Assembly: GCA_024305745.1 (NCBI GenBank)
Contig: JAHRBS010000006.1
Location: 2,501 to 66,500, forward strand
Source: Polyporus tsugae
Lineage: Eukaryota > Basidiomycota > Agaricomycetes > Polyporales > Polyporaceae
DNA length: 64,000 nt
Direction of reading: 5' to 3'
In this document: piece by piece, positions 682-19,960 of the stretch
Layout: each line of letters begins with the position of its first letter
Numbering within the stretch: position 1 is the stretch's first letter
Position numbers and translations under genes: made by a program
Notes under the pieces: model-generated
Told to the model about the DNA's origin: nothing
Database searches by the model: none
The model's input: only the letters and a program-made list of their open reading frames with translations

Positions 682-853
682 TGTCCGTCCAGGATGGACC
701 GGTTCGGCACTAGGAGGGACAGGGGGCGAGTGGTAGGAGGTATCCCATCCTGGACGGACTGTTTCAATATCAGGCTGGACTCCCAGCGGGGTGCGTCCGT
801 CCAGGATTACCAAATAGTTGACAGGAAGTGGCAGGGTGTCCGTCCTGAACGAG
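682..853. repeat. Decayed palindrome copies
   Basis: Four degraded versions of the 19-bp palindrome lie near 682-700, 742-760, 792-810 and 836-853. Each keeps one half (TCCGTCC or GGACGG) and has mismatches in the other. They mark the left edge of the palindrome-rich territory. Confidence 0.7.
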
Positions 854-1004
854 CAGCTGTTGCAAAGACAATCAGCTACAGGAGCTAAGATGCCCTAGTG
901 CCCTGCATGTACATGTTATCTATTTTTTGACGTTGGCTGACTGATTGAATGGTCTCATAGTCGCCTATACACCTTCGTTACCCCGTCACGACTCCTCAAT
1001 TACG

Positions 1005-1445
1005 TGTCCGTCCAGGACGGACACCGGGGGCCCCAGGCCAATTGCCGCCACGGGCACACTCACCGCCTTGTCCGTCCAGGACGGACACTCGGGGCATGTG
1101 CGCCGGAAAGGAAGATCACCGCATGGAAGGAACAAGCAAAGAGCGGCATCGAATTCCCATTCCCAGGGTGCGGACACCCCTTACAATGCGTTCGCGTTCT
1201 CGGGGTCAAACCACGCCGCGAAGTCCCGCTCGAAGTTCAAGCTCGAGTCGTTCATGAGCGTTCAACCCAGGCTCCCTAATTCAGCGAGAACGTAGGCAGT
1301 GAAGGCGCCGGAGGGGGCAGAGGAAGGGATGTTGAGAGGGCCGGAGGAGACGATAGGGGCAAGGTGAAGGAGTAAGTAGTAACTCAGGAGGTAGGGGCGG
1401 ACACACCTACTCACCGAAACGAGAACCATCCGTCCAGGACGGACG
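1005..1445. repeat. Three 19-bp palindromes (TGTCCGTCCAGGACGGACA)
   Basis: Perfect copies lie at 1005-1023 and 1069-1087. A third at 1427-1445 keeps the core but has mismatched ends. All have A at the centre. The sequences between them are unrelated, so the conserved unit is the palindrome and not a longer repeat. No gene is supported between 900 and 1950. Confidence 0.95.
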
Positions 1446-1990
1446 TTCGCTGCACCCCACATGAATTGATCGGTCTCTCTTCGCTGTGTTGCCCAGTAGC
1501 CACCACTACCCAACCCGTAAAATCACCCGGTATTGCCTTGGCTTTCGGAACTTGCGACCGATGAGACGCTCAGCGTCTTCGAAGTTGCGAGGTCCCTGGG
1601 GATCCGGTTCTTGCCTGCAACGCTGGAAGGTGACTGAGGTGGTGCAATTGCGTTGTTGATGTTGGTCTCGACACGTTGGCAAATATCGAATTTTCACATC
1701 TGCCCCAAAAGCTAGGTGGTATCCCGTCCATTCTCGTCCACGAGTGCACCCTCGAGTGCTGGCGGCACCAAGGGAATTCGGCAAGTATCATGGCATTGGA
1801 CAGGACAAGGGGAGATGGCAGTAGCGAGGACGCTACCGTGTTTGTCTGCCCCACTAGATGAGTAATAATAATGCCCTTGTTCAACGTGTTTTTAGGCGAA
1901 GAGGAGTGTCATAAGCTCCCGCTGTCGTCAAGTTTCTAGGCTCCTCGGACTCTCATGTGTAACTGAGGGTCTGGCCATGAGGCATATCTG

Positions 1991-2374
1991 TACAGCGTGG
2001 TGTACGTCCTGGACGGTAACATCGGGCACTGTCCCCGACTGTTGAACATTTATCCACCGTTGAGTATTGTCCTCGTGTGATAGATACCTCTAAGCTTATG
2101 TTCAACGCGGCAGACACGAGGCAAAGTGCGTGCGTCCCACCGCAGCTGTCCGTCCAGGACGGACACATCCGCCACCGCCCAGTACAGCGTGGTGTACGTC
2201 CTGGACGGTAACGTCGGGCACTGTCCCCGACTGTTGAACATTTATCCACCGTTGAGTATTGTCCTCGTGTGATAGATACCTCTAAGCTTACGTTCAACGC
2301 GGCAGACACGAGGCAAAGTGCGTGCGTCCCACCGCAGCTGTCCGTCCTGGACGGACACATCCGCCACCGCCCAG
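1991..2374. repeat. 192-bp tandem duplication carrying palindromes
   Basis: Two nearly identical 192-bp units, 1991-2182 and 2183-2374. Each holds one decayed palindrome (2001-2019; 2193-2211) and one perfect palindrome (2147-2165; 2339-2357). The two units differ at only a few positions. One of these is the central base of the perfect palindrome, A in the first unit and T in the second. Confidence 0.95.
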
Positions 2375-2595
2375 GGAGGTTCAACTGTTTCCCGCTCGCG
2401 GCCCATCGTCCTCATGTTGCACATTGGTCCTGAATTCGACACATGTTGAGTCCTCGAGGCCGCCTTAGCAACGGACACTGTATTCCACCTATTGTATCAC
2501 TCCAGTCGCAACGACGAGCCTCTCGTCACCGCGTGTCGGGGCCCAGCGGCCCAGCGGGCACCCACCCGCAAAGTCGACAGGTGTCCTGTCCTCCG

Positions 2596-2614
2596 TGTCC
2601 GTCCAGGACGGACA
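2596..2614. promoter_or_regulatory. Palindrome just upstream of a TATA box
   Basis: A perfect copy with A at the centre ends 26 bp before the TATA box of the next gene and 65 bp before its start codon. The position is where a bound factor could influence transcription. A regulatory role is inferred from position only, since identical copies occur where there is no promoter. Confidence 0.5.
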
Positions 2615-2640
2615 GGTCTGTATCCCAGTGCAGGCCTCGG

Positions 2641-2647
2641 TATAAAA
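2641..2647 (+). promoter_or_regulatory. TATA box (TATAAAA)
   Basis: A consensus TATA box lies 33 bp upstream of the ATG at 2680. This supports the chosen start and suggests a very short 5' leader. Confidence 0.65.
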
Positions 2648-2679
2648 TCACATCGCTCCGTGCAAGTCGATCTGCAACC

Positions 2680-5600
2680 ATGGCGCCACCGCTGTTCCCT
2701 GATGAGCCTCTCCCTCCTCGAACCATCGGCCTTACGGAGTTCGTACAACTCGCTGAACAGTACTGTAACGACGAGAACATCGACCGTTTCGTCAACCTAG
2801 TCCTCGCGGGTCGCGCACCCATAACCCGCCCCAATGCGAACACCAACCAACGCCGTCTTTTCATTAATCCCCGTTACGAATGCGAGTTTCCCGAAAGTTA
2901 CACCATTCTTGGCGACTTTGACTCTGTTATCGGTCTCACTCGTCTCCTTCCATTCAGCAAGTCTATCACCTGGCACTTGTTTCCCCCTTTCTCCGAGACC
3001 CTTACCACTTCCGTCCACATCAAGTGGCCTATCACCAGAAATGTAAGTAAATAACCTACATCAATCGTCACCACTCTCACCCACTCTGTTATTCAGAACG
3101 CCACCCTTCAGGTCCCGCTTCACAAAATTCCGAACTGCCTTTGCTTCAAGTTCAGGACCCGCCACCAGGGTCGTCTCTTCTTCCCAAAGCGATACGACCC
3201 GCACGTCCCTCCCACGCTTAGTAACGAGGTCTTGGCCTCCATCTACGATGATGCCATCCGTCCCGCCCTCGGGGCTGTCGCCCCCGAACTCGCAGTCCAG
3301 TGGCCGGTGAATTTCAGTCACGTCACTCGTCTCGTTCGGAGCCGCACTGGCCAGCTCGGCGCCCTTACCAAGGACATCACCCAGGTCTTTCTTGAGGCCT
3401 TCGCGCGCGAGCTCCTCGATCGCCTGGCCCAGCTCGACGAGAGCTTCGCGGATGCCTTCTTCGAGATCGAGGCCAAAGGCGTGAAGGCTTCCAGCGCTCA
3501 CAACCCCCAGGATTGGTGGGCTCGCAGTGAGGCCCTTGCAGCGGTCTTGGACCCCATCGACCAGCAGCTTATTCCCGACGAGGAGTTGGAGTCACGTTGG
3601 TTTGTCGACGTCGCCCTGGAAGTTCACGCTGAGGGCCGGGTTATGCAATGGCTGACCGAAAGTCACACCCGGCTCATTCGACACATGCTTCCCTCTATCT
3701 CAGAGGACCAGGCCATCGCTTTGAAGCGCAGCAAAGCTTTCAAGGAGGACCTCAGCGGACACCTCACAGCATTGTCCGGCTTCCGCCTCGAGACGGGGAC
3801 GAAAGGGCGCGCTGACCATGTCTCCTATATCAACGTCTACACCACCGACAAGTCAGCGACCTATCAGCAGCACGCAGGGACCTATCGGCGTCGCACCGCG
3901 CAGGACCTCTTGCCCAACCCTTTCGAGAAGTTCCTTTCCGACGTCGACACCGTCGCAGAGACCTTCGCCGACTGCGCAGGGGGTTCCGGTGTCCTCCAGA
4001 ACGGTGCAGCTCGTATGGAGGCCCGCGTCGGCCTCTTGTATGCCAAGCAGGCTCTCGCAGACATCCCCGACGACCTCGTCACGGAGTCGATTCTCGCCGT
4101 GGACTCCGCCATCTGGTGGTAAGTCCTCTGTCTATGGTTACCTGTAAGCTTTCTAATAGTTCATTTATAAAGGTACTTCAAGTTCTTCCGCGCATCGGCG
4201 CTCTACCGGCTCTTCAAAGAGTTGGCAAGCTCCCCTCCCGATGCTCGTTCTTGGACACCCAGCCTCATGTTGGGTGCTGTCTGCGTCTACATGTTCAACG
4301 CTGTCATCTACCGCCCTTCCGGGAAGAGGATCGAGGAGGAGCTTGGCAGGCAGTGCGCGTTTTGGACCCATCCCCACGTCCACCCCTACGAGGCAGACTA
4401 TGCGGATGCCGAGTTCGAGAACGTCAACCTCGTCCCTTGCACCCTCGACCGTGGCCTCTACTTCATCGCCGGTCTCGTGCGCGACGAAACTCATGGCGTC
4501 TTCCGTCTCGCCGCTGTCCGTCAGTTAGAACGGGAGGAACTCGCTATCCTCTACAAGAAGCCCAACCTACACGACATCGCGAAGGCCTTCGGCGGGCGTT
4601 CTTTTGGCCTCTCCATCTACAGTCGATCACACAAGGACCGGACCAACACCAGGCGGCCCACCGTCCCCATCCAGGCTGTCAGAGGTCAGCTTACCCTTCA
4701 CAATTTCACCCTCACTCAACACGGCGTCGCGCGCATCCCCACCATGCAAATGACGGGCCCTGACATCGAGAACCTCGACGACCCGGAGGACGAAGAAGTT
4801 TCCTTGGATCGCGCCTTCTCTCTTCTCTGGGCCCAGTTCCCTTCCGACATCATCCAATGCTCCCCGAACCAGAAGAATCGGCACAAGCCTTCGTACATCA
4901 AGCTGAGCCAAGCTGCGCGCGAGGCTGTGACCCACGACTTCTTCCGAGCTGTCGAGCTTCCTTTCGAGGCCGCGTACCTGCGCCTTTGCAATGAGCAGCA
5001 ATGGAGAGAACTCGTCTTCGACAAGTTCTTCCCGCCCAAAGGGACTGTTCTCTCCGATCGCCTTCAGAACTTCCGCAACGCCCGCTATTTCTCGAGCTAC
5101 ATTGGCGAGATAGGCCGCCTCTCAGACCACGACGCCACGGTTATCCGCGATGAGCTTTGGATTCTATTCCGAGGGCTGTCCTGGCTCCCGCATCCTTATT
5201 CGGATCGCATGTGGAAGAGCAAGGCCTGGCATCCGCTCCCTGCAGGCTGGAGGGCCCTTCCTCCCGGGCACGACGAACCAGCCGTTCATATCGTCGTCAA
5301 CAGCGCCAAGTGCCCCGATCCTCGCGCCGTCTTTCTGCTCGGCGCGCCTAACCCGCGCGCTCGGGAGGCCGAGCCGGAAGACGAGGAAGACGCCGCGTGG
5401 GTCGAGCTAGCCCAACGCCTCCAAACGATCAACATGACCCACGGAGAGCCTCGCCTCGATCTCGCCCACAGTGTCGGTCCCCTCCTCGACAGCATTCGCA
5501 GCCTCCCAGGTGGTGGGCATGCCCGCGAGCGTGAACGTTCCCCGAGCGTTGCGGGGAGTAGTGCCAGTCAGGCCGGAGGGGCGGGCCGCGGTAACGCTTA

Positions 5601-5874
5601 TCGTCGCGAAGAAGAAGAGGAGTCTAGCAGTGGGGTCGAAGTGGGCCGGGCTCTGAGCGAGCCCCCGGTGGATGTCTTTTCCATCGGACTCACTCGCGGT
5701 CACGACGACTGGAGCCCGCCGCCCTCGCCCGTACTCATGTTCCCTTCTAGCCCGGAGCTCGTTGAGTGTGCCCTTTTCGACGGACTTGACGCGTCTGACG
5801 AGGAACGGGGCCCGAAGCGCCGCCGCGTGAACTCTGACCGTTTCGTAGATTTCGACGCGTACAGTGATGTTTAG
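2680..5874 (+). CDS. Unrecognised large basidiomycete protein, 1028 aa, 3 exons
   Basis: Exons are 2680-3042, 3097-4118 and 4173-5874. Both introns are 54 nt, GT-AG, and keep the frame (phase 0 and phase 2). The start is the first ATG after the TATA box, reading MAPPLFPDEP. I do not recognise the family and see no catalytic motif. Residues 1 to about 870 look globular, with many Trp/Tyr/His positions and helical stretches. From about 870 on the protein is acidic and low in complexity, and a basic GPKRRRV cluster near the C-terminus could be a nuclear localisation signal. There is no signal peptide or membrane segment. It has the same orientation and GC-rich codon use as the SNF2-like gene 1.35 kb downstream, and a palindrome foldback separates them. 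The pairing suggests, but does not show, a shared nuclear role. Gene model confidence is high; function is unknown. Confidence 0.85.
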
Positions 5875-5964
5875 TGTTTCGTGAAAGTACACCGAACGTG
5901 TTTCATACAAATATATGCGTAGTTTGATTCTCAGCTGCGAGTGTTCGTTTCACGCGTGGCTCGG

Positions 5965-6668
5965 TCGAGACGCGTCCGTCCTGGACGGACACAGACAGAG
6001 GCGGGGACGTTCTGCCATAGTTCAACTGGCAAGACCGGCAAATGTGTCCGTCCTGGACGGACACATAGGGAGGGAGCCCTGCACTGTACTTTGCTCCAAT
6101 GATCACATTTCAGGGAGCAGAACTGTCCGTCCTGGACGGACACATGGGGTGTAGGAGCTGTTCGGGCGCTCTCAGGCCTCACCGACTCTTTATCCGTCCT
6201 GGACGGACAAACTGGGCTTATGGCCTGCACTATATTTGACATATCATTTGTTAATCCTCAGTCGCTGGGCATTTGTTGATCCCCTGTCAATGGCTAAGCC
6301 ACGGAGCAACCTCCTTGGCCGAGCCATTGACAGAGGATCAGCAGCCTCTGGGGCCCAGCACTTGACAGAGGATTAACAAATGCAAATGATATGTCAAATA
6401 TAGTGCAGGCCATAAGCCCAGTTTGTCCGTCCAGGACGGATAAAGAGTCGGTGAGGCCTGAGAGCGCCCGAACAGCTCCCACACCCCATGTGTCCGTCCA
6501 GGACGGACAGTTCTGCTCCCTGAAATGTGATCATTGGAGCAAAGTACAGTGCAGGGCTCCCTCCCTATGTGTCCGTCCAGGACGGACACATTTGCCGGTC
6601 TTGCCAGTTGAACTATGGCAGAACGTCCCCGCCTCTGTCTGTGTCCGTCCAGGACAGACTCATCTCGC
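5965..6668. repeat. 0.7-kb foldback with eight mirror-placed palindromes
   Basis: The arms, about 5965-6250 and 6383-6668, are near-perfect reverse complements without indels. Palindrome centres at 5982, 6054, 6133 and 6200 pair with 6651, 6579, 6500 and 6433, and every pair sums to 12633. The left-arm palindromes have T at the centre and the right-arm ones A, as expected of an inverted copy. The roughly 132-bp loop holds a second, imperfect inverted repeat around CCTCTGTCAATGGCT. It may be a foldback-type mobile element or the product of an inverted duplication. It also fills the space between the two large genes. Confidence 0.95.
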
Positions 6669-6752
6669 CCCGCGGTGCGGCGCGGTGAGTGAAGCCATCA
6701 GTCAGCTGAGGTACGGTGACATGCACCAGCGAATGCCAGTTTCCACTGTGCG

Positions 6753-6771
6753 TGTCCGTCCAGGACGCGCT
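6753..6771. repeat. Damaged palindrome copy
   Basis: The left half TGTCCGTCC is intact and followed by A. The right half is mutated to GGACGCGCT. It lies just outside the foldback, within the upstream region of the SNF2-like gene. Confidence 0.8.
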
Positions 6772-7133
6772 GTCTCAGCCCGGGAATGGATTGCCAGAGA
6801 GGTGCTTTTGCTTGACCTCCTAGAAGTAAATAACAAGCCCATCAACAAGTGCAGCCCCGCACCCGCGTTGGGTACAAAGAAACATACCGCCCAGAGTATC
6901 GTGGATCTCCGCGAGACTCGGAGTCCGAGGACGTGACAGGCAGGCCACGGAGCATGTGGTCGTTGTGTCCGCGGCCATCACGTCGAGGTTTCTATTTAGG
7001 AAGTCAATTGCAACCTCCACGAGGTTCTTTTCCCGAAAAGGCCATGCAACTTCCTCGAGGGATCGTTGAGGACACCGCGTGTTCAGGGTCGGGCCAGGGC
7101 TCATTGTGGTCGCCGCCGCCTCATGTTGGGCGG

Positions 7134-7140
7134 TATATAT
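7134..7140 (+). promoter_or_regulatory. TATA box of the SNF2-like gene
   Basis: The sequence GGTATATATC lies 86 bp upstream of the favoured ATG at 7226. An in-frame ATG at 7154 is only 14 bp downstream of this box, which is too close for a normal transcript start, so 7226 is preferred. Confidence 0.55.
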
Positions 7141-7225
7141 CAGACAGAGTTCGATGCGCCCGCTCCCTCCAACCCCCTTTCTCCCCACCACCTTCAAGCT
7201 CACCAGCACCCACCAACTCGACAGC

Positions 7226-10200
7226 ATGCCCTCCCTCGACAACGTCAGCCACCTCCTCACCATCTGCGCGGACACGCCGGAGTCGTTCACGTGGAACGTT
7301 TGGCAAGACCGTACCGGCCTCCTCGCGATGCCGTTCGGCCCAGAGGCGACTTACAAGACGGCCGGCATGAACAAAAAGGAATACAAATTAGCAAAGGTTT
7401 TTTATCGGCGCTGGTTGGAGGAAGTGGGGTCCGCCAAACGGTTGCAGTTTGTTCGCGGGCGGACCGACGCGCACCAGGAGGGGCGCGTGATCGTGAAGAA
7501 GTGGGCGGCTGACAAGTGGGCGGAATGGGAGATCTCGGAGTTGGTCGCTTCGACTCTCGATACCTGCAGCTTCAAGACGTTCGACGTCCCCAAGGCCCTC
7601 AAGCGCGACCAAGTAGTTTATTTAGTGTAGTTGTTTATTATACGGTTTACTGACTTATGTGCACAGTGGCCGAATGCGACGGACCTCGGTATCCGTGACG
7701 TAGTCGCCCCCAACCTCGCCCTTGCGATGTTCGGCCCCGACTGCGTCACGGGGGTGGGGTCGATCCAGGTCGTCCACATCCCCCTCATGCCGGTCGTTGG
7801 GGGTCTCATCGTTTCGGCGTGGGACTCGAGGGGGCGGGCGTGGAAGCGGGCGCGTGCGGGCGCGGTCAAGAGCGAGGATAAGTTGGCGCGGGACGTTGCA
7901 GGTAAGCCCCAAGTCCCATTTCGCAGCTTGCAGGCTGACCTTTGTTTGTAGCACTCGAGTCCCCCGACGCAGTGCCCACCCCCTCCGAGATCGCTCGGAT
8001 CATCCAGCGTATCAAGCGGACGGTCACCAAGTCGGAATTGTTCGGCGACGCGGCCATGGTGGAGCTCGTCGCTGCGTGGAAGACCAGGCTCGAGCAGATG
8101 TACGAGGTGGCGGCGAAAGTCAAGGAGGCGAAGCACGACCGTAAACACCTTTTGTTACTGTTCTTACATTTGTGTTACTGACGCGTTTGATTTACAGGCA
8201 TTCCCGCCGGCCTCCTGAAGGCCCTCAAGGCCCTCGCGGACACGCCAACGGTGCACATCGTCCTGTGCGAGCTCGAGCAAGCGATGGACGACCTCCCCGA
8301 ACACTACCTCGACGCGGTCGCCGAAGCTGCCGACGAGTTCGACTTCTCGGACTGGCTGACGGGCGTCGAGGACCTCCAGGACAAGGACCCGCAGGAGCTT
8401 TGGGCCGGCCTTGGGCTGAACAACGAGCAGATCCCTGGGTTCAACGAGGTCGAGGATCCGCGTGGCGAGGTCAACCCCTGGGACCCGACGCAGTGGGCTA
8501 AGTTCGTCAACACCGACAAGGCACTCGCTTTCGGTCCCCGGTGGCATCAGCTCGTCGGGATCACGAAGATGTGCGAGCTCATCATCAAGGGCAAACCCCT
8601 CCTCCTCATGGACCAAGTCGGCGTCGGCAAGACGCTCCAGATCGTCGGCGCCATAGTCATGTACCCGATGCTTCGCGCGTACTACCAGAGGAACAAAAGG
8701 TTCCCCCCGCAATTCAGTAAGTCTTTGCCTTTTCTGCTCGTTACTTGCATTTACTAACAGTGTGTATTACAGAGGGCCTGAAGTGCGACACGCCGGACGG
8801 GAACTTGCCCGACCGTCCCCACCTCATCATCGTCCCGGTCCCGCTATTCGACCAATGGATGTTCGAGTTCAAGCGGTACGTCAAGTTCGGCTCTGTCGAC
8901 ATCTACCCGTACAAGCACCAGTGGGCCCAGTCCGGGAGGATGGCGATCTGGGACGAAGTGTTCCACCTCAAGGACGACAAGCAGACGCTGAGCCACAAGG
9001 TTCTGCTCGTCGCGTACACGGTAAGCAGCCCAGCTTTGTTTATTAACTTCTGAATATGCATGCTAACGTCTGTAGGCCGCCGAGTCCGATTGTTCGCAGC
9101 GGTTCACGAACACGAAGAAGATCGCTCCCCAGCGGCCCGAACGTGACTCCGCGCTGCCCATGAGGTCGATGCTGTACGATTACCAGTTCGGCATCACCAC
9201 CATCGACGAGGCGGCCAAGATGCGCAACCCCAGCCACCACTGGACGACGATGAACGAGCTCTCCCTCCTCTCCCACTGCACCATCGCGGCGACGGCGACG
9301 CCCATCACGAACTCGCCCTTGGTAAGTACGTTTCTTATGCTGGTTGTGGGACCATACTGACTGCCCTTTAACAGGACTTGGTGTACATCGGCCGGTGTAT
9401 CGGGATCCCCGCCTGCGAGGAGGAAACACTCTTGGTCGACATGAAGAAGAAGCTCATGGCCGCCGCGCGCAAGTCCAACATCGAGTTCCGCAACGCTCGC
9501 GAGGACGGCGACTTCGTACAGGGGATCCTCAACGGCGAGATCGACCTCCCGGCCAAGAAGGAGCAGGTCAAGCAAATGACCTCGTACACCGTCGCGCTTC
9601 GCAAGATGTTCAACGGCCACACCATCCGCCGCACCCTGGACGCCGTCGACTGGGAGGGGCGTCCCATCTCGGGGCTGAGCCCTTACGTCGCCCAACAAAT
9701 AATGCTCACGCCGTTGGACGAGGAGTCGGAGGTGTTGGAGGCGACAGCAGCCGCGATCGTCGCTGAGCACGACACCGCGCGCACTGCCGCGATGGTTGCG
9801 CAGGCTGAAGGACACGTAAGTCTTCTCGTTCTCGTTGATACTCAAGACACACAGGGCGGACGCTTCGAGACACGACCGGGTCTCGAAGTGTCCGTCCTGG
9901 ACGGACACACAGGGGCACAGTGCCGCGTCCCAACATGCGGCAGGCTGGAGTGTCAGAGGTGTCCGTCCAGGACGGACACATAGCGCGCCGATGCCTGTTC
10001 ACGGTTTCGCACTGGTGGCAATCGTGATGCAAGCACGGTGGCTGCAGGTGTCCGTCCGGGACGGACACTTCTGCGCTGACTCCTGTCTATGGGCCGGATG
10101 CCGCCAAGAGTGTCGTGGATCTCCGCGAGACCACTGGCAGGCGGGCCCCTCCCTCTCACCTGTCCGTCCCGGACGGACACCCGTGAGTGCCGCCACGGTT

Positions 10201-12772
10201 GCCACTCCGTCGTGGCCGCACTCACGGGTGTCCGTCCGGGACGGATACCATTGGCGCGTGGGGAGACGAGAAGACATCGGGCAGGCCCCTCGCTCTCCTT
10301 GTCCGTCCTGGACGGATAGATTTCCACTGAGACCTCGTGAAATGCGGCGTGGTGGATTTCACGTCGATTTGTTATTGAACCGCAGGGGCCCATCCCCCGG
10401 TGTCCGTCCGGGACGGACACACTTTGTTCATCTCCACTGTTGCTCACACACTGTTCATCCAGGCTTTCTACGGTCGTTTCCGCCGCAGCCACCTCCACTA
10501 CAAGCTCCTTGATGACCCGCTCTGGGCGCCGAAAGATATGGAGGAGTGGGAGGCCACCACCTCTACGAAGCTCCAGAACCTCATCGACATCCTCCTCCAT
10601 CACCTCGCCGACGACAACGCCCCGCTCCTTCGCCGCCCCTCGCAAGACAGCAACGACTTGGAGGCGGATCCCGAATGGAAAATGCAGGAGCGCGACGACG
10701 AAACCGACTATCCCGACCGCATCATCGTCTACGTCGCCTTCCCTTCCAACAACCACCTCATCACGAAGGCAATTAACACTTTTCTTCTGTCGTTATCATT
10801 ACTTATACACTTTGATTTCGCAGGTCTTGAGCTTCTACGGCATCAAGTACATCGAGGTCAACGGCTCCAAGCGCATGTCCGTGCGCTCAAAGGACATAGC
10901 CAAGTTCCGCAACTCCGACCGCGACGGACCCCGTGTTTGCCTGTTGTCGAACGTTGGCACGATGGGCCTCAACCTCCCCCAGGCCAACATCCTCGTCGCC
11001 TTGGTAAGGTTCTATGTCTTACTGTTGTTATTTCTTACCTAACATCCAAACAGGATCAAATGTGGTCGCACCAGGACTTGCTTCAACTGATCGGTCGCAT
11101 TTGGCGCCACCCCCAGAAGAAGCAGGTGTTGGTTTACCAGCCTTGCCTCGAGCACGCCACGGACATGTTCCTGAGCGTTCTCTCGTTCTCGAAGAACGCG
11201 CTCCTCGCCGCCTTCACCAAGTCGTCGAAGCAGACAAGTAAGTTTTTAATTATTATCTTTATGACTCTAACAGCTGTTTACTAATGTACTGTAGAATCCA
11301 TCTTCCGTCATCTCCTTCCGGCCGGGCTCCGGGATGACAGTGACGAGGATGACGAGCCCGAGCCCGAGCCCGCGACGAAGACCAAGGCCAAGCCTGCGGC
11401 CAAGGCAGCCACCCGGGCATCCACCCGTGCATCCACCCAGGCGTCCACCCGGGCGTCCACGTCCAAGGCCAAGGCCAAGCCGCCCGCCGTCGCTGACGAG
11501 GACAAGGAGAGCTCGGAGAGCGAGGACAAGGAGAGCGAGGACGAGGAGGGCGAGGACGAGCAGCCGACAGGCAAGGCCAAGCCTGCGGCCAAGGCAGCCC
11601 CCCCCGCGTCCAAGCCCAAGCCCAAGCCCAAGCCCAAGCCCAAGTCGCCCGCCGTCGTCGCTGACGAAGACGAGGAGAGCAAGGAGAGCGACGACGAGGA
11701 GAGCGAGGACGAGCAGCCGAAAGGCAAGGCTAAGGGTAAGGCCAAGGCAGCCCCCCCCGCCTCCACCCGTGCATCCACGCCCAAGCCCAAGCCCAAGCCC
11801 AAGCCCAAGCCCAAGCCCAAGTCGCCCGCCGTCGTCGCTGACGAGGGCGAGGAGGCCGAGCAACCGAGAGCCAAGGGCAAGAGCAAGGTCGCCGCCACCG
11901 CAAGGGTCGCTCCCGAGGATGACAACGACCAGCAGCCTGAGCCCGCCCCAACCCAGCCCTCCAAGCGCGACCGCAGGAAGCTCGTGCCAGAAGTGGTGCT
12001 CGAATCGCGCCAGTCCCAGTCTGCGCCGGCGGGGAAGAACAGCAAGAAGGACAAGAAGAAGCACCCCGCGCCCGAGCCCGCGCCCGAGCCCGTGCCCGAG
12101 CCCGTGCCCGAGCCAGCCCCCCAGCCCAAGGTGTCCAAGCCCAAGGTTAGGCCTACACCGAGGGCACCAGCGGCCTCATCGTCGGCGCGCACCGAGGACA
12201 CACGCGCGGAGCCCGGGCCCTCGCGTCAGACCCGTCCCGACGCCCCCGCCACCCCCAACGCTCCCCCCTTGAAGCGCACGGCCAACGTGTCAGGGCATCG
12301 CGATGAAGAGGTGGACGACGAGCAGAAGGCCAAGCGGCAGAAGAAGAAGGAGAAGAAGGAGAGGCAGGCCCTAAAGCGCAAACGCGAGGAAGCCGAGAGA
12401 GAGCAACTGGCCCAGGCAGTCACCCTCCCCCAGAACTTTCATTTCGACTTCGACGTGGACCCGGCGCCCGAAGGTCGCAGCCCACCGGCGAAGAGGGTTG
12501 CAGGAGAGGGCGCGGGTGCCTCTGGGAGCGGCGCGGGTGCCTCTGGGAGCGGCGCGGGTGCCTCTGGGAGCGGCGCGGGTGCCTCTGGGAGCGGCGCGGG
12601 TGCCTCTGGCTCTTCTCCCGCCGGCGGTCGTGGTGGTGGGGCTTCTGGCGGCCGCGCATCTAGGCGCGACGATAGCGACAGCGATCGGCCAATGGAGGCC
12701 AAGGACATTTTTCTGAAGCGGGTCGCGGGGAGCGGCCGGCCTGGTAAGGCGAGTCAGCTCGGCCGCAAGTAG
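7226..12772 (+). CDS. SNF2-family helicase-like ATPase, 1470 aa, 11 exons
   Basis: Exons: 7226-7612, 7667-7901, 7952-8140, 8198-8716, 8773-9020, 9076-9321, 9375-9815, 10463-10768, 10824-11003, 11054-11237, 11295-12772. All junctions keep one frame. The protein carries the two-lobed SNF2 ATPase layout: Walker A as DQVGVGKT (about 409-416), motif II as DEAAK (about 570), TATPITN (about 600), then the C-terminal lobe with FYGIKYIEVNGSKRM and QLIGRIWRHPQKKQV (about 930), ending near residue 978. Canonical SNF2 proteins have DEMGLGKT and DEAH/DEGH, so this is a divergent member. Residues 980-1470 are disordered: alternating Lys/Pro runs, acidic Ser/Glu/Asp blocks and a GAGASGS repeat. Likely role: ATP-driven remodelling or translocation on chromatin in the nucleus. 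Intron 7 is 647 nt and full of palindromes, while the other introns are about 50-57 nt. Intron 8 uses a GC donor. Confidence 0.9.
9816..10462 (+). repeat. Oversized intron with seven palindromes
   Basis: GT-AG intron 7 of the SNF2-like gene, phase 0, about 11 times longer than its neighbours. It contains palindromes at 9889-9907 (centre T), 9960-9978 (A), 10049-10067 (G), 10161-10179 (C), 10229-10247 (G), 10300-10318 (T) and 10401-10419 (G). The pair at 10161 and 10229 forms the ends of a hairpin with arms of about 34 nt. A 31-bp segment at 10101-10131 matches 29 of 31 positions in the same gene's upstream region (6887-6917). The splice donor GTAAGT and acceptor CCAG are intact, so the insertion is probably tolerated because it is spliced out. 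Confidence 0.93.
12509..12616 (+). repeat. Coding minisatellite, 21-bp unit
   Basis: About five tandem copies of a GGCGCGGGTGCCTCTGGGAGC-type 21-bp unit encode repeated GAGASGS heptads in the disordered tail of the SNF2-like protein. The copies are almost identical, which points to recent slippage expansion. Confidence 0.9.
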
Positions 12773-13167
12773 ACTTGTTATTCTTCGCATATCGCTCTCG
12801 TTTGACTCGGACAACTGTACTATAGCATTCTGGATACGACGCACGGCTGAGATTGTTTGTTGGACAGTCGATAGGACTGTATCTTCCCATATGTTTACCT
12901 TATCCATACCTCTTAATCTCAATCTGTGACCCCCCCTTCAACAGAACAGCACGGGTTGAATTGCGCGGTACAATAAATGGATGTAGGGCTTACCTGCCTT
13001 GTCCATGACGGATTCCAAACCTTTTGACGAACAGGCCTGACCAGATCCCCTCCCGACCAGCTCATCTACATTCCTCTCCCCGACGAACTGTCGCGTCTAT
13101 CAATCCTCAAGGCTGTGCTCACGCGGAATATCACAGGTGTGTGCTGCTGGCGCTGTGCACCCAGAAG
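12773..13167. other. Spacer downstream of the SNF2-like gene
   Basis: No gene or repeat is recognised. It probably includes the 3' untranslated region of the SNF2-like gene. Confidence 0.4.
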
Positions 13168-13243
13168 AGCCCGTCCTGGACGGACACGGCTGCACGGGCA
13201 CCCACACACCCCTCGCACGACACCTGTCCGTCCAGGACGGACG
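13168..13243. repeat. Two palindromes with mismatched outer bases
   Basis: One at 13168-13186 (centre T, left end altered) and one at 13225-13243 (centre A, last bases altered). The cores CCGTCC and GGACGG are kept in both. Confidence 0.85.
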
Positions 13244-13450
13244 GCCACGCACCCATGCCTGTCTGGCCCATGTCCAGCCACGTGTGAAAGCAGCCGTTCG
13301 TGCGTGTTCAAGTTCTATGGGTCGTTGTTCAGCGTGCCACTTGTTATTAGCGCAACTTCTCGTTATCCAATAACTATTACTTGCCGAATTTCATTATGAC
13401 GAATCACACTCGCAATTGTACAGATGTAAATGGCAGCAGGTGACAGAGCA

Positions 13451-13704
13451 GTGGTATCCGTCCTGCACATGCAGTGTGGCAGGTGTCCGTCCAGGACGGA
13501 CGGCTGGGGATCGGGGGACGCACGCGCAGTGCGGCAGGTGTCCGTCCAGGACGGACAGGACGGGTGCTCACACCCCAGTGGTATCCGTCCTGCACATGCA
13601 GTGTAGCAGGTGTCCGTCCAGGACGGACGGCCGAGGATGGTGGGACGCACATGCAGTGCGGCAGGTGTCCGTCCAGGACGGACAGGACGGGTGCTCACAC
13701 CACA
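13451..13704. repeat. 127-bp tandem duplication with four palindromes
   Basis: Two 127-bp units, 13451-13577 and 13578-13704, each with two palindromes: 13484-13502 and 13539-13557, then 13611-13629 and 13666-13684. All four centres are A. Each unit also holds a half-related GTATCCGTCCTGCACATGCA segment. The flank at about 13720-13840 resembles, weakly, the arm sequence of the foldbacks at 15.4-19.4 kb (GCATCAAT, TTATTA). Confidence 0.95.
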
Positions 13705-14878
13705 ATGCTATACCGACTGGCATTACTATGTATTGCTTTGTTCTCATTCAATGCTGCTATTAAACATTGCATCAATAGACGCATTAACATCAAGTCTTGA
13801 CACCCTGTGTGTTATTATTGGTACACTGGTGTAGAGTGTATCTGCTCCATCTTTATCTAGTAAAAAGTTGATGACTAACTCACTACTTCGCCATCAAGTT
13901 CTACGTCTACGTGGTGTTCACATAAGCAGCTCATTAGCTACAGCCACCTCAGGGCGTTAAGCTCCAGACAGATCATCACATTATACACAATATTCGCCTA
14001 ACACAAATCAATGTAACTCCCAACTTGTAACCCACAGGCCGTCCTACTAATCCTCACAAGCCAAGATAAGCTGTAGCAGTTTTTGCCTACTGGAAACAGC
14101 ATCCATCATACCAAGGTTTCTTATTCACTTCGCGCTTGAAAGAAATAGCCCTCGACGGTCCACCACTGTCAAAGCTAGATTCCGGTAAGCAAACGCCTCT
14201 AGAAACAGACAACTTGGGCTTACGGTGGGGTGCTTACGTCCCTCAGGCGAGTAGTGGGGCGAACGGGACTGTAAGCCCTTGCAAGACGCCAGGGAGAAGA
14301 GTCGACAATGCCCATAGGCTGAGCAGGAGGTGGAGCCTCGCTGAAGCGCACAGGAGGCAGAGGCTGAATAGGAGGGGGTGGTAATGGGCCTAGAGGAGGA
14401 GGGCGGCACGGAGGGAGCTAGCAAACCATATTCATCAGAGGGGTTGGCATCCTGACAAACATGTGGATCTGACCTTTTCAAGTGAGCGTATTCTAACCCC
14501 ACGATGCTGTGTTGCATTGTAGTTGGCGAGTTCAATTTCGTCGTCAAGCTCCCGCCCAGATACCAAGCAATCGACCCCGAGGTTGTTGGTGAGAACAATG
14601 GAGCACTGCCCGGAGTCATTGGTGCCAGACTCCGTAGAAGTGAGACTCCCATCCTCTCCATGTTCGTCAGCATCCTCCGCAGAGAGCGGGTGAAGGCTCT
14701 GAGCATCCACGTCCCGCGGACGCACGGGGGGGCGGACAGTCTCGTCGGTACTGGTGCTGGTGCGTGACGCTACGGGGAGGGGGCGCATCGTGACTCAATG
14801 CGGGGTCAGTGAGGTCGGGACTGGATTAAATATCCCGAAAGTGTGAGAGTCGTGCCTTCCTTACGGCAAGGGCTAGGA
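13705..14878. other. Spacer with one doubtful minus-strand ORF
   Basis: A minus-strand frame from ATG 14788 to 14435 encodes 117 polar residues (MRPLPVASRTSTSTDETVRP). An AT-rich TATTTAA lies about 40 bp upstream of it. It has no recognised domain and could be either a small gene or chance. The rest of the interval shows nothing I can name. Confidence 0.2.
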
Positions 14879-15038
14879 CGACAAAGTAAGGCCGAAGTCC
14901 GGAAGCTGGCCTAGGGGGAAAATAGTTAGCCCACAAGCGAAGGTATGCGAAGCTACCGTTTACGGTAAGGTTCCAGCCAAACCACAGCCGAGGAAAGGTC
15001 GATGTCAGCCAGTTCTCGGACTTCGACCTTACGTCATT
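14879..15038. mobile_element. Possible short MITE
   Basis: About 30-bp inverted ends, starting ACGACAAAGTAAGGCCGAAG on the left and ending CTTCGACCTTACGTCAT on the right, enclose about 100 bp of non-coding DNA. The inverted match has several mismatches. No clear target duplication was identified. Confidence 0.4.
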
Positions 15039-15396
15039 ATATCACTGCCGCGGAGTGCGCATGACGGAGTAGAGGTTCGAGATATCCGTCGAAGCTATAC
15101 TGCGGTTCTGGGACTAAGTCCAACAGGGCAGGCCTCTCCATTGAGGAAGAACATTGACTACGGTTCAATGTCAGCACCTTCGTGCATGGTATCCGTACTT
15201 GAGGAATGTGTCGGCCACCACCGTCGTTCGCGCAGTGCCCGCAGACTCTTGCCCTATAAGTTGCTCATGACGCAATGTGATAACGAAATTGAAGCCTTGA
15301 CAGCGAAGTACACCCTTAGTTTGTTGTTAATATTCACTCCAACTGCTGAGGTTAAGCCCCGCACGCATATGTGGTGGACAGGGCCAGTGCAGCAGG

Positions 15397-15415
15397 TGTC
15401 CGTCCAGGACGGACA
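15397..15415. repeat. Palindrome at the left border of a foldback
   Basis: Perfect copy, centre A at 15406. Its right half GGACGGACA is also the first 9 bp of the foldback that follows. About 15040-15396 to its left shows no gene. Confidence 0.92.
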
Positions 15416-15949
15416 GGTCGGATGTAAGGCCCTATGCAAACTGGCCTGTAGAGTTATCATTCGACGCTACTATTAAGTGGTGGATTAATGAATGCATCAA
15501 TGCCTTTACCTGGCCGAGTTATTAGCACACCAGTGCGCATTTATTGGGTTCTACTGGTGTTAGTTAATGATTAATAAAGAGGTGAGTGCGATGCTATGGC
15601 ATTAACGGACGCCAGTCATTAGTTCACGATCAGTGGTGGGAGCACAGTCAGGCGCCACGCTAGTGGTGTCCGTCCAGGACGGACACCTCTAGCATGGCGC
15701 CCGACCGTGTTCCCACCACTGACCGTGAACTTACCACTGGCTTCCGTTAATGCCTTAGAGTAGTGTCGCATTCACCTTTTATTAATCATTAGCTAACACC
15801 AGTAGAACCCAATAAATGCGCACTGGTGTGCTAATAACTCGGCCAGGTAAAGGCATTGATGCATTCATTAATCCACCACTTAATAGTAGCGTCGAATGAT
15901 AACCTTGCAGGCCAGTCTGCATAGGGCCTTACATCCGACCTGTCCGTCC
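15407..15949. mobile_element. 543-bp foldback element hinged on a palindrome
   Basis: It begins with GGACGGACA and ends with TGTCCGTCC, the two palindrome halves. Its arms (about 15416-15666 and 15686-15940) are reverse complements with scattered mismatches. A complete palindrome sits at its exact centre, 15667-15685. It has no coding capacity. The arm motifs (GCAAACTGGCCTG, GCATCAATG, GCGCATTTATTG) recur in the foldback at 18936-19411 and in the loop of the 3-kb element. It may be a non-autonomous element with long inverted ends, or the result of palindrome-initiated inverted duplication. Confidence 0.88.
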
Positions 15950-16185
15950 ACTTCATGCACTAGTCATCTCCAAGACAGGCCATGACATTATGTTACAAAA
16001 CAATATGCGATATGACAACGTATCAACCAACTCCATGCGCAAAATACAGACACCCCCGCCAAACATCGCTGTCGCCGACCCAACCATCACGCGTGCACCC
16101 TCCTCCCGCCTTCTCCGTCCTCTTCGCCTGCTTTCTCGCCCACTGGAGGGTATCGAGGACGGCCGCCGGAGGACGACATCAACGC

Positions 16186-16932
16186 TCACGGCGCGGCTGT
16201 CGAGCCCCAGAACACACCGTGCCTGACAACGGTGGTCACTGCAGAGAAACAGTTAGCAACTCTACACCGCGAATAGATCGGGTAATACGCACGCTCGCGG
16301 AGACTGGTAACGTCTTGTTTGAGGTACACCAACAGTTGCACCCTCGCGTCCACGACCTCCGCATCCGCCATTTGCAGCGCGAACTCTGCCCCGTTGGTCA
16401 CCTCCTGGGCATACTGAGCTGCGGCTTTCTCGGCCTTCCTGCGTGCTTGCAAGTACGAGTGCATCGCGTTGCTGAAGTTGTCTTGCGCCGTGTTCATCTG
16501 CCTCACCCGCGTAATGATGGAGTATTCTTCACCAAACTCCCTCAGCGCCCGACTGCTAGGCCGCTCGTGATACGGCAGGCTGGCGAGGTGGCTGTACAGC
16601 GTGCTGAACTCGCTATCCACATTCACCAACGGAGGCAGCGCGCGCACTAGCATTAGGAATGCTGACATCGCATACGACGCGCTGAACCTAACAGGCTGCG
16701 GCCTCGGGCCTGGGATGGGGGTCGATGGTGGGGATAGGTTACTGGTGACAATGCGGCCGACGAAGGCCTTGAGCTCATAGGACACAAACTGGTCGACAGA
16801 GTTCATAGCGGTGAGAATGACAGTGATGCGATGGCTGCTCTCCCAACTTGCGGTCCCTTTATATTCATCGCCAGGCGGGCTCATCCATGCGGCCAGCACC
16901 TCCACGGCCTTCCTTTTCACTTCACCGTCCGT
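16186..16932 (-). pseudogene. Start-less copy of the element's unknown gene
   Basis: The inverted partner of the gene at 18048-18802. Protein similarity covers the whole length; blocks such as MSAFLMLVRALPPLVNVDSE are identical and others diverged. At the position of the partner's ATG this copy has ACG (16932-16930), and I see no other in-frame ATG close by. The first codon that could serve is GTG at 16920. The C-terminal intron, about 16242-16292, is conserved and joins to TTVVRHGVFWGSTAAP before the stop. It is otherwise open, so loss of the start may be recent, or a non-ATG start may be used. Confidence 0.7.
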
Positions 16933-17508
16933 CCCATAAGTCCTCCCTTCTTGCCGGGGTCTCCATCAACACTCCTTAGTACATTCAAGTCCATCAGGTT
17001 CATTCTATACATAGACAGTCATGTTCCTCGGTACCGCGGAACATCCCTTCCCTTCCTTCCTTCTACAACAGAACACGTAATTCCTATATCAGGCCACTTC
17101 GTGTCCGCTTCAGAAGCCAATGTGGGCGTGAACCTACTATATTGTTAATTGACAGAATATGACGTCCTCCCACACTGTGCTATATGTTTTCTACTCTTTG
17201 TGTTTCACCTACACATATGTTCTCACTCAATTGTAAATGGGATTGAACTCCTGTGAGAAGTGTGTGACGAGACGGTTGTCGAAGTCCTCACCAGCCGAGT
17301 GAGTGTCTCTAGCAGCAGTCCTCCAAACCTATTCTCGGTTCTACCATCAGTGAAGTTTGTACTCGCAACTGGTGCACATTTATTGTGTTCTACCCGTCTT
17401 AGCCAACAATTAAAGAGGTGAATGCGACGCTACTTTACGGCATTAAAGGAAGCTGATTGTAAGACTAAGGGCAGTATGGTCAGGCGTCATGACAGCGGTG
17501 TCCGTCCG

Positions 17509-17527
17509 GGACGGACACTCTGCACGG
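17509..17527. repeat. Palindrome inside the 3-kb element
   Basis: Perfect copy with G at the centre, 28 bp from the element's symmetry point. It lies in a roughly 240-bp loop whose left part resembles the arm of the 15.4-kb foldback. The element therefore carries a copy of the kind of site it is inserted in. Confidence 0.93.
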
Positions 17528-18047
17528 GTTGGGACCAAGTGCGGTACTCGCTGAGCCGCCAAAACAGCAAACGTCTCCAACTGACGTACTGCCACTAATA
17601 GATACTGTCCCTTGCGAGTGCAAACTTCACTGATGGTAGAACCGAGAATAGGTTTGGAGGACTGCTGCTAGAGACACTCACTCGGCTGGTGAGGACTTCG
17701 ACAACCGTCTCGTCACACACTTCTCACAGGAGTTCAATCCCATTTACAATTGAGTGAGAACATATGTGTAGGTGAAACACAAAGAGTAGAAAACATATAG
17801 CACAGTGTGGGAGGACGTCATATTCTGTCAATTAACAATATAGTAGGTTCACGCCCACATTGGCTTCTGAAGCGGACACGAAGTGGCCTGATATAGGAAT
17901 TACGTGTTCTGTTGTAGAAGGAAGGAAGGGAAGGGATGTTCCGCGGTACCGAGGAACATGACTGTCTATGTATAGAATGAACCTGATGGACTTGAATGTA
18001 CTAAGGAGTGTTGATGGAGACCCCGGCAAGAAGGGAGGACTTATGGG

Positions 18048-18802
18048 ATGGACGGTGAAGTGAAAAGGAAGGCCGTGGAGGTGCTGGCCGCATGGATGAG
18101 CCCGCCTGGCGATGAATATAAAGGGACCGCAAGTTGGGAGAGCAGCCATCGCATCACTGTCATTCTCACCGCTATGAGCTTCATCGACGACTTTGTGCAC
18201 CAGGAGGTCATCAACTACGTCACCCGGACTGTCTCCCGCCACCCATCCACACTTACACAATCGACCCCCATCACAGGCGCGACGCTGCAGCCTGCTAGTT
18301 TGAACGCGTCGTACACGATGTCGGCGTTCCTAATGCTAGTGCGCGCGCTGCCTCCGTTGGTGAATGTGGATAGCGAGTTCAGCACGCTGTACAGCCACCT
18401 CGCCAGCCTGCCGTATCACGAGCGGCCTGGCCTTCGGGATCTGCGGGAGTTTGGTGAGGAATACTCCATCATTACGCGGGTCAGGCGGATGAAGGCGACG
18501 CAAGACAACTTCTGCGCAGCGATGCACGCGTACTTGCAAGCACGCGGAAAGGCCGAGGAAGCCGCCGCTGAGTACGCCGAGGAGATGAACCAGAGGACGG
18601 AGGGCAAGCTGCACATGGCGGATGCGGAGGTCACGGAGGCGAAGGCGCGTCTTTTGGCGCACCTCAAAGAAGACATCACGAGTCGCAACGAGTGTGAGTA
18701 TCAACCCGATCTGTTCGCGGTATAGAGTTACTAACTGTTTTCTCTGCAGTGACCACTGTTGTCAGGCACGGTGTCTACTGGGACACAGCAGCGGCACCGT
18801 GA
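18048..18802 (+). CDS. Unknown 232-aa protein of the 3-kb element
   Basis: Exons 18048-18693 and 18750-18802; the intron is 56 nt with GTGAGT and CTGCAG. The start is ATG in CTTATGGGATGGACGG. The protein (MDGEVKRKAVEVLAAWMSPP) shows no family I know. It has a basic N-terminus, a central conserved block around residues 90-135 and an Ala/Glu-rich, probably coiled-coil stretch at about 150-215, ending RHGVYWDTAAAP. There is no signal peptide, membrane segment or zinc-finger pattern. Two copies at mirrored positions inside a bounded element suggest a role in the element's own maintenance or movement, but no catalytic residues of a transposase or recombinase are visible. Confidence 0.6.
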
Positions 18803-18935
18803 GCGCCGATGTCTTGGGTGAGAAAGTAGGACGGTGTCTGTACTGCGTGTATTGCTTAATATGTTGTCGCATTGCATATTGTAACTCAATGTCATGGCCT
18901 GTCTTGGTCTAGGAGATGGACTTAGTCAATGAAGT

Positions 18936-19411
18936 GGACGGACAGCTCAGATGCTTGTCCTGCCTCCCGCTGCAAACTGGCTTGCAAGGTTATTATATCA
19001 GTATTGCTTCGTTCAATGCCACTATTAAGTGGTCAATTGATCAATGCATCAATGTCTTTACCCCGCCGTGTTATTAGCATACGGGACAGTATTCATTAGT
19101 AGCAGTATATCAGCTAAGTACTGCACTTGGTCGCACCCCATGCACAGTGTGTCCGTGCAGGATGGAGACCTATGGCCCGACGCCTGACCGCACACGCACT
19201 ACCGATGGGCAGAACAACAAGATATGGGCACTAGTCTACCAATAATTCAGCCGAATAAAGACTTAAAGATCAGTTAATGTTAATGCATCAATGCACCGCA
19301 TAATAGGGGCATTGAACGAAGCAAAAGAGATAGGTGCTTTGTAATGACCATGCAGGCCAGTTGGCACATCATTGCAATATGAGCCAGGTCTAACACCGGA
19401 CCTGTCCGTCC
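18936..19411. mobile_element. Older foldback with half-palindrome ends
   Basis: It starts with GGACGGACA (18936-18944) and ends with TGTCCGTCC (19403-19411). The arms are imperfectly inverted; TTGCTTCGTTCAATGCC on one side mirrors GGCATTGAACGAAGCAA on the other. A decayed palindrome (19150-19168) lies near the middle. The layout matches the 15407-15949 element, but with more mutations. Confidence 0.75.
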
Positions 19412-19960
19412 TGGACGGACACCTGCGGGACTGCCCTTGCCCCACCACATGTGCGTGGTCCTATACTCGGCTGTCCGTCCAGGACGGATACCCCTGCTCT
19501 GCCCCCTGCTCTCCTTTATTCTCAATAGTGGCATTGAACGAAGCAAAAGGGATAAGTACTATGTAATGACCATGCAGGTTGGCACATCATTGCAATATGA
19601 GCCAGGTCTAACACCGGACCTGTCCGTCCTGGACGGACACCTGCGGGACTGCCCTTGCCCCACCACATGTGCGTGGTCCTATACTCGGCTGTCCGTCCAG
19701 GACGGATACCCCTGCTCTGCCCCCTGCTCTCCTTTATTCTCAATAGTGGCATTGAACGAAGCAAAAGGGATAAGTACTATGTAATGACCATGCAGGTTGG
19801 CACATCATTGCAATATGAGCCAGGTCTAACACCGGACCTGTCCGTCCTGGACGGACACCTGCGGGACTGCCCTTGCCCCACCACATGTGCGTGGTCCTAT
19901 ACTCGGCTGTCCGTCCAGGACGGATACCCCTGCTCTGCCCCCCGCTCTCCTCTATCTTCC
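19310..19960. repeat. 218-bp tandem array, three units
   Basis: Three nearly identical 218-bp units (starts about 19310, 19528 and 19746; the last is partial). Each carries two palindromes: T-centred at 19403, 19621 and 19839, and A-centred with GGACGGATA ends at 19472, 19690 and 19908. The first unit overlaps the right arm of the preceding foldback, so the array seems to have grown from that arm. These are the last palindromes in the window. Confidence 0.95.

What the first reader, a model, noticed from the sequence alone, without database searches (positions are those of the whole stretch)
682..19926. A 19-bp palindrome with an odd centre repeated 37 or more times in 19 kb
TGTCCGTCCNGGACGGACA is conserved while the DNA between copies is mostly unrelated. 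Copies occur in spacers, an upstream region, an intron, foldback hinges and tandem arrays, and stop abruptly near 19.93 kb. Such strict conservation of a short palindrome implies selection for binding or recombination, or very recent spread. It does not fit a normal MITE, satellite or CRISPR repeat.
Basis: seen in the sequence. Interest (0 to 1): 0.93.

Follow-up and report, generated by a model that had tools for sequence, protein, structure and literature searches.

The report
Chromosome-end elements with private palindromes
The repeated 19-letter palindrome belongs to a selfish-looking two-gene DNA element that sits at many chromosome ends of a polypore-like fungus, and two older relatives of the element at other ends each carry a different 19-letter palindrome at corresponding places, as expected for binding sites that changed together with a matching protein.

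Summary
The window holds 36 copies within 2 mismatches, none expected. The window is a subtelomere (C6:2501-66500) of a 43.2-Mb genome with TTAGGG telomeres. Of 197 exact copies 185 were listed, all within 41 kb of contig ends. They belong to a Y'-like block with an intact unknown gene (gene 1, 1028 aa) and an intact SNF2/Rad5-like helicase (gene 2, 1470 aa). The block is repeated at several ends and in tandem.

The main result goes beyond the finding. Two diverged relatives in the same genome (C2 left, C5 left; gene 1 about 52% and 45% identical) lack this palindrome in the stretches read. Each carries its own 19-bp odd palindrome, TGGCCYTCC-N-GGARGGCCA or CACCCGACC-N-GGTCGGGTG. Clusters sit upstream of gene 1 and at the same enlarged helicase intron in all three families. 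In the C2 type the arms vary independently, which speaks against a hairpin.

Best reading: family-private binding sites of a dimeric protein, possibly the element's own. Binding is inferred, not shown. Nine literature searches showed no precedent.

The parts
682..2614 (.). box cluster A, telomere side and upstream of gene 1 (682, 837, 1005, 1069, 1427, 2001, 2147, 2193, 2339, 2596)
2596..2614 (.). promoter-proximal box, 26 bp before TATAAA (2641) and 65 bp before the gene 1 ATG (2680)
2680..5874 (+). gene 1: 1028-aa protein without Pfam match, introns 3043-3096 and 4119-4172; homologues in Ganoderma adspersum and Dichomitus squalens
5973..6771 (.). box cluster B between gene 1 and gene 2 (5973, 6045, 6124, 6191, 6424, 6491, 6570, 6642, 6753), mostly inside an inverted repeat
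5963..6670 (.). inverted repeat carrying most of cluster B
7226..12772 (+). gene 2: 1470-aa SNF2/Rad5-like ATPase (SNF2-rel_dom, Helicase_C), 10 introns
9816..10462 (+). intron 7 of gene 2, 647 bp against 50-57 bp for the other nine, holding 7 boxes (9889, 9960, 10049, 10161, 10229, 10300, 10401); same splice position as the box-bearing intron of the C2-left element
13168..13684 (.). box cluster D downstream of gene 2, with a 127-bp tandem repeat (13449-13701)
15397..15949 (.). foldback unit: inverted repeat 15407-15949 with a box at the hinge (15667) and half boxes as its outer ends
   Evidence: sequence
15941..18944 (.). larger foldback with half boxes at its two ends (15941, 18936), a box in the loop (17499) and two inverted copies of a small gene
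18174..18802 (+). small gene (gene 3), right-arm copy, 1 intron, no Pfam match above cut-off; left-arm copy starts at 16806 on the minus strand
19302..19955 (.). 218-bp tandem repeat, 3 units, each with 2 boxes (19403/19472, 19621/19690, 19839/19908); proximal part of the block

Best explanation
The palindrome is a cis-acting protein-binding box of a Y'-like subtelomeric element. A dimeric DNA-binding protein recognises two 9-bp half-sites in inverted order around one free base. Boxes are set in clusters, mostly 55-115 bp apart, upstream of gene 1, between the genes, in intron 7 of the helicase gene and beyond. There they most likely organise the element's chromatin and expression (autoregulation, insulation or silencing in a repressive chromosome end), and the SNF2/Rad5-like ATPase may be the remodeller brought to them. 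Three families of the element in this genome each use their own box, so box and binder appear to have diverged together; the conserved unknown gene 1 product is the first candidate for the binder. Shown: the element, its location, the intact genes of the window copy, three families with three boxes at corresponding places, the uncompensated degeneracy pattern of one family. Inferred: that a protein binds, that it is a dimer, that it is gene 1, and what binding does.
For: Location: 185 of 197 exact sites were listed and all 185 lie within 41 kb of a contig end; tandem head-to-tail blocks at C13 right (second one partial) and C16 right. Family-private boxes: the C2-left element has TGGCCYTCC-N-GGARGGCCA at about 2.8-3.7, 7.7-8.3, 11.1-11.6, 14.5-14.8 and 16.5-16.7 kb; C5 left has CACCCGACC-N-GGTCGGGTG at 34 places between 15.4 and 31.4 kb. 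The window motif was not found in the first 20 kb of C2 left and C5 left. Same places: intron 7 holds the cluster in 3 of 3 families (window 7 boxes in 647 bp; C2 left 6 boxes with up to 2 mismatches in 607 bp, same splice context AAMVAQAEGH|; C5 left 6 boxes in a 673-bp gap between exon matches); clusters lie upstream of gene 1 in 3 of 3. Recognition pattern: in 32 non-redundant C2-type sites positions 4 and 6 are degenerate on both arms (pooled majority 0.59, 0.67) while the others stay at 0.88-1.0, and the arms vary independently there (12 paired vs 13.3 expected; 15 vs 16.9). Diverged paralogues whose homology was confirmed from flanks: 2 of 90 box bases changed vs 47 of 241 flank bases (p 1.7e-5); with one weaker pair 5 of 108 vs 64 of 287. 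No box in coding sequence, 0 of 42.
Against: No binding protein is identified. Gene 1 has no Pfam match, no PDB sequence match better than E 0.9 and no fold assignment. Recent block copies show no constraint on boxes, and the C8-left copy has six box changes, all C>T or G>A. The paralogue test is biased because sites were first recognised by their motif; the C3-left tandem pair is the least biased case. In the window-type sites the outermost position pairs slightly more often than chance (27 vs 24.3, p 0.05; p 0.03). Box distance between families does not track gene 1 identity closely (window-C2 51.8%, window-C5 44.6%, C2-C5 52.5%; half-site consensuses differ at 2, 4 and 5 positions). The C5-left gene matches contain stop codons, from introns or from decay. 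Three families are few.
Confidence: 0.62

Rival explanations
1. The boxes are what is left of an old ~70-bp subtelomeric satellite, kept alike by recombination and gene conversion between chromosome ends, with no binding protein.
For: C3 left and C16 left carry a tandem array of 70/71-bp units with the box. Box spacing in the window is often near 70 bp. Spacers show weak residual similarity in global alignment (z>2 in 13.6% of 272 comparisons vs 3.9% of 408 controls), though not in local alignment (7.4% vs 7.6%). Recent blocks are over 99% identical over long stretches.
Against: Homogenisation does not explain why only 19 bp stay alike while spacers diverge, why both arms differ together between three families, why the degenerate positions are the same on both arms, or why the same helicase intron holds the cluster in 3 of 3 families.
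Confidence: 0.14
2. The palindrome is a mobile mini-insert or the junction of two abutting transposon ends (9-bp inverted ends), multiplied by insertion, like the double-hairpin elements of some mitochondrial genomes (recalled).
For: Many contexts without detectable common flanks (22 groups); foldbacks whose ends are exact half boxes (15407-15949, 15941-18944).
Against: Several box pairs share homologous flanks with the box already in place, so these were not separate insertions. No interior site among the 185 exact window-type sites listed. Insertion does not predict placement in the same intron in three families with three different sequences. Target-site duplications were not tested.
Confidence: 0.1
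3. The palindromes work as DNA structures (hairpin or cruciform) that promote breakage, foldback and recombination at chromosome ends.
For: Boxes sit at the hinge of 15407-15949 and in the loop of the 15941-18944 foldback; slight excess pairing at the outermost position of window-type sites.
Against: Arm changes are not compensated at the degenerate positions of the C2-type boxes, and most window boxes are not at hinges. A 1-nt centre gives a strained loop (general knowledge).
Confidence: 0.09

Closest known systems
Y' elements of Saccharomyces cerevisiae (PMC13177704, passages seen)
   Same: Subtelomeric, several kb, present at some ends only, tandem copies, helicase ORF, several sequence classes; the passages also tell of insulators with Reb1-binding motifs and of proto-silencers (ARS consensus, Abf1 sites) in X and Y'.
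   Different: The helicase here is SNF2/Rad5-like and split by introns, there is a second conserved gene of unknown kind, and the boxes are a 19-bp palindrome private to each family rather than sites of general host factors.
Subtelomeric RecQ helicase genes of mushrooms (Agaricus bisporus PMC7473861, Ganoderma leucocontextum PMC10817607; passages seen)
   Same: Helicase genes in multiple copies at chromosome ends of mushrooms.
   Different: Those are RecQ; Pfam gives SNF2-rel_dom and Helicase_C here. The term search found no 'palindrom' in either paper and no 'SNF2' in the Agaricus paper.
CENP-B box in alpha satellite (recalled)
   Same: Short conserved protein site in a diverging tandem repeat.
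   Different: The CENP-B box is not a palindrome, binds a host protein and is centromeric.
EBNA1 sites of oriP, papillomavirus E2 sites, plasmid iterons (recalled)
   Same: Many palindromic or repeated sites for an element-encoded protein, private to each element.
   Different: Those are episomes; here the element is chromosomal and the binder is unproven.

Membership tests
Y'-like subtelomeric element | directly next to telomere repeats | tested here: met
   C8 left: CCCTAA tract to about 152, block sequence from 159
Y'-like subtelomeric element | tandem head-to-tail copies | tested here: met
   C13 right (second copy partial) and C16 right
Y'-like subtelomeric element | sequence homology to Y' or its helicase | not tested
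   no direct comparison with the Y' helicase was made; the similarity is of anatomy only
Telomere-linked RecQ helicase (TLH) | RecQ-type helicase | tested here: not met
   Pfam: SNF2-rel_dom 1.5e-15, Helicase_C 1.1e-11, no RecQ model among the five families listed; best PDB match of the homologue profile is Rad5
MITE | longer conserved internal sequence between terminal inverted repeats | tested here: not met
   information falls off beyond +-10
MITE | target-site duplication | not tested
   no empty sites were compared
Simple satellite | whole unit repeated in tandem | tested here: inconclusive
   true 70/71-bp array at C3 left and C16 left; in the window most spacers are unrelated or only weakly alike
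CRISPR array | regular spacers | tested here: not met
   start-to-start distances between neighbours from 46 bp to several kb
Dimeric protein-binding site | symmetric position-specific degeneracy without pairing covariation | tested here: met
   C2-type sites; window-type sites vary too little for a strong test and show a slight pairing excess at the outermost position
Dimeric protein-binding site | a protein that binds | not testable with these tools
   needs EMSA, DAP-seq or ChIP

The most novel reading that the evidence does not exclude
Each family of a chromosome-end element encodes, in gene 1, its own dimeric DNA-binding protein of an undescribed kind that reads only its family's 19-bp palindrome and works with the element's SNF2/Rad5-like ATPase, so that several mutually blind selfish systems coexist at the telomeres of one fungus; the families are older than the split from Ganoderma (C5-left gene 1 is 69.9% identical to the G. 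adspersum protein but 44.6% to the window's own).
Probability: 0.33. Interest if true: 0.9.

Novelty: new variant of a known kind. Interest (0 to 1): 0.82.

Why it matters
What the helicase-bearing elements of fungal chromosome ends do, and how they stay there, is open: the passages of the Y' paper seen here say that functionality of the ORFs is not settled. A set of element families with different palindromic boxes at corresponding positions makes the question testable, because it predicts who binds what: three proteins against three boxes. If true it would be a private cis-trans code for subtelomeric selfish DNA, and the unknown gene 1 family would get a function.

Tried and rejected

One search miscounted the weaker paralogue pair; one search has the corrected numbers.
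Full report
What was checked. The motif TGTCCGTCCNGGACGGACA occurs 36 times with up to 2 mismatches at 682-19926 and not elsewhere in the window; 100 shuffles gave none. Allowing 4 mismatches gives 42 sites in the window, all with 3 or fewer. The window is C6:2501-66500 of a genome of 43.24 Mb in 18 contigs. Telomere repeats were seen at 12 of 18 left contig ends and at several right ends; at C6 left none was seen in the part that can be read, so its place at a chromosome end rests on the contig start and on the same block lying next to telomeres at C8, C3 and C16 left. Genome-wide there are 339 sites with up to 2 mismatches, against 4 for the pattern read backwards.

Where the copies are. The exact copies number 73 + 12 + 112 = 197. 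185 of these were listed; all 185 lie within 41 kb of a contig end (C3 left and right, C5 left, C6 left, C8 left, C13 left and right, C14 right, C16 left and right). The 12 unlisted ones should, by the order of the list, come after C16:2908768; they were not seen. Places of the inexact sites were not listed. Blocks stand head to tail at C13 right (second one partial) and C16 right, and the listed strands fit one polarity relative to the telomere. At C8 left the block begins about 7 bp after the telomere tract.

The element. Two genes in the block splice to intact frames: gene 1, 2680-5874, 1028 aa, two introns, no Pfam match; gene 2, 7226-12772, 1470 aa, ten introns, SNF2-rel_dom and Helicase_C. 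Introns were set by eye. The profile of gene 2 homologues matches Rad5 best among solved structures. Relatives of both genes occur in Ganoderma adspersum as V8D89_016230 and V8D89_016232, both listed with a longest contig of 33,846 bp; that this is one contig is inferred from the equal length and the numbers. Partial gene 1 homologues occur in Dichomitus squalens. The host is therefore probably a polypore; no tool names it. Gene 1 exon 3 has 8 near-identical copies, all near contig ends, 6 of 8 without a stop. Gene 2 has 9 such copies. Block copies are above 99% identical over long stretches, with one C8-left stretch at 97.9%.

Other families. The gene 1 search also found two diverged homologues, both near chromosome ends: C2 left and C5 left (51.8% and 44.6% identity over aligned residues). 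Neither shows the window motif in the first 20 kb. Instead C2 left has its own odd palindrome, TGGCCYTCC-N-GGARGGCCA, in clusters at about 2.8-3.7, 7.7-8.3, 11.1-11.6, 14.5-14.8 and 16.5-16.7 kb. A genome search for exact matches to TGVCCNTCCNGGANGGBCA gave 13 sites, 12 on C2 left and 1 at C13 right, and none for the reversed control. C5 left has CACCCGACC-N-GGTCGGGTG: of 41 distinct places with up to 2 mismatches, 34 are on C5 left (15.4-31.4 kb), 4 on C17 right about 24 kb from the end, and 3 are interior singletons on C13, C4 and C9; the reversed control gave 1. C5 left also carries two window-type exact boxes beyond that element, at 32.9-33.1 kb. All three consensuses are 9 + 1 + 9 bp with CC at half-site positions 4-5 and 8-9, though position 4 is loose in the C2 type. 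The C5-left gene matches contain stop codons, which may be introns or decay.

Same places. In the window nine helicase introns are 50-57 bp and intron 7 is 647 bp with 7 boxes. At C2 left the corresponding intron is 607 bp (11061-11667), begins right after the same residues (AAMVAQAEGH), ends before AFYG, and holds six C2-type boxes with up to 2 mismatches between 11116 and 11634; the other gaps between helicase exon matches there are about 45-55 bp. Boxes also lie upstream of gene 1 in all three families: nearest at 2596 for the ATG at 2680; at 7661 for a C2 start near 7489-7498; at 19537 for a C5 match beginning at 19383. Boxes lie upstream of gene 2 in the window and at C2 left (14480 for a start at 14212); at C5 left the gene 2 start was not mapped. 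Gene order differs: gene 1 then gene 2 in the direction of transcription in the window, gene 2 then gene 1 at C2 left and C5 left.

What kind of constraint. None of 42 window boxes lies in coding sequence, where 8,636 of 19,245 bp are coding (p 1.4e-11; the left-arm gene 3 limits in this count are approximate). In an even-handed rescan of the cluster regions (up to 5 mismatches anywhere; shuffled expectation 0.55 and 0.65 sites) 32 non-redundant C2-type sites show positions 4 and 6 loose on both arms (pooled majority 0.59 and 0.67) and the others at 0.88-1.0, while the two arms of a site vary independently at those positions. That is how a protein dimer on double-stranded DNA would look, and not how a selected hairpin would. 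The 34 non-redundant window-type sites are most conserved at the inner positions 5-9 (0.94-1.0) and less so outwards (0.84-0.93); at the outermost position they pair slightly more than chance (27 vs 24.3, p 0.05).

Time depth. Between recent block copies boxes change like the rest: 6 of 1,824 versus 144 of 46,851 bases, p 0.83; C8 left alone 6 of 722 versus 84 of 18,383, p 0.16. All six changes are in the C8-left copy and are C>T or G>A; that copy shows CpG transitions in 30 of its 76 private changes, which would fit cytosine methylation. At larger divergence, four sets of paralogous stretches whose homology was confirmed from flanks alone have 2 of 90 box bases changed (centre base left out) against 47 of 241 flank bases, p 1.7e-5; adding the weaker 17499/19150 pair gives 5 of 108 against 64 of 287. 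Other weak or repeated pairs were left out of the count. Box changes per pair were read by eye from the sequences; recognition of sites by their motif biases this test.

Age. The C5-left gene 1 is 69.9% identical to the Ganoderma adspersum protein, while the window's gene 1 is 45.0% identical to it. The families therefore look older than the split of the host lineages, or have moved between them; gene trees were not built.

Mechanism. The best-supported account is a family-private dimer-binding box, likely organising expression or chromatin of the element at a chromosome end, with gene 1 as first candidate for the binder. The box 26 bp before a TATA sequence and the intron cluster fit regulation; nothing here tells activation from repression or insulation. 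No expression or binding data were available. Structure prediction of gene 1 did not help.

Known relatives. In anatomy this is like the Y' elements of yeast (PMC13177704, passages) and the subtelomeric RecQ genes of other mushrooms (PMC7473861 and PMC10817607, passages), but the helicase is of another kind and the private palindromes have no counterpart in the passages seen. Nine literature searches showed no earlier description in their listings; subscription journals are mostly outside the library. Comparisons to CENP-B boxes, EBNA1 and iterons are from memory.

Noticed in passing
C3 left 2061-2484 (L007) and C16 left 1247-1600 (L020): A tandem array of alternating 70- and 71-bp units with the box lies 1-2.5 kb from the contig end; the two unit types differ in their spacers while nearly all boxes are identical.
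   Followed up: yes
window 15941-18944: A foldback whose outer ends are exact half boxes; a whole box lies in its loop and two inverted copies of a small gene (gene 3) in its arms.
   Followed up: partly
C8 left block (L012, L035): 30 of 76 changes private to this block copy are CpG transitions, and its telomere tract joins the block directly at window position 882; this suggests a truncated, perhaps methylated copy.
   Followed up: partly
window 21027-22490: A second subtelomeric repeat, about 98.8-98.9% identical to stretches near the C11 left and C1 left ends, lies just inside the block.
   Followed up: no
C17 right 3029472-3029748: Four C5-type boxes where no gene 1 or gene 2 match was reported: perhaps a remnant of that family.
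   Followed up: no
window 37829-38030: A 33-bp minisatellite of about six units outside the block.
   Followed up: no
C2 left and C5 left elements versus window: Order of gene 1 and gene 2 is swapped relative to transcription, as if the elements were circular permutations or cut from a tandem array.
   Followed up: partly
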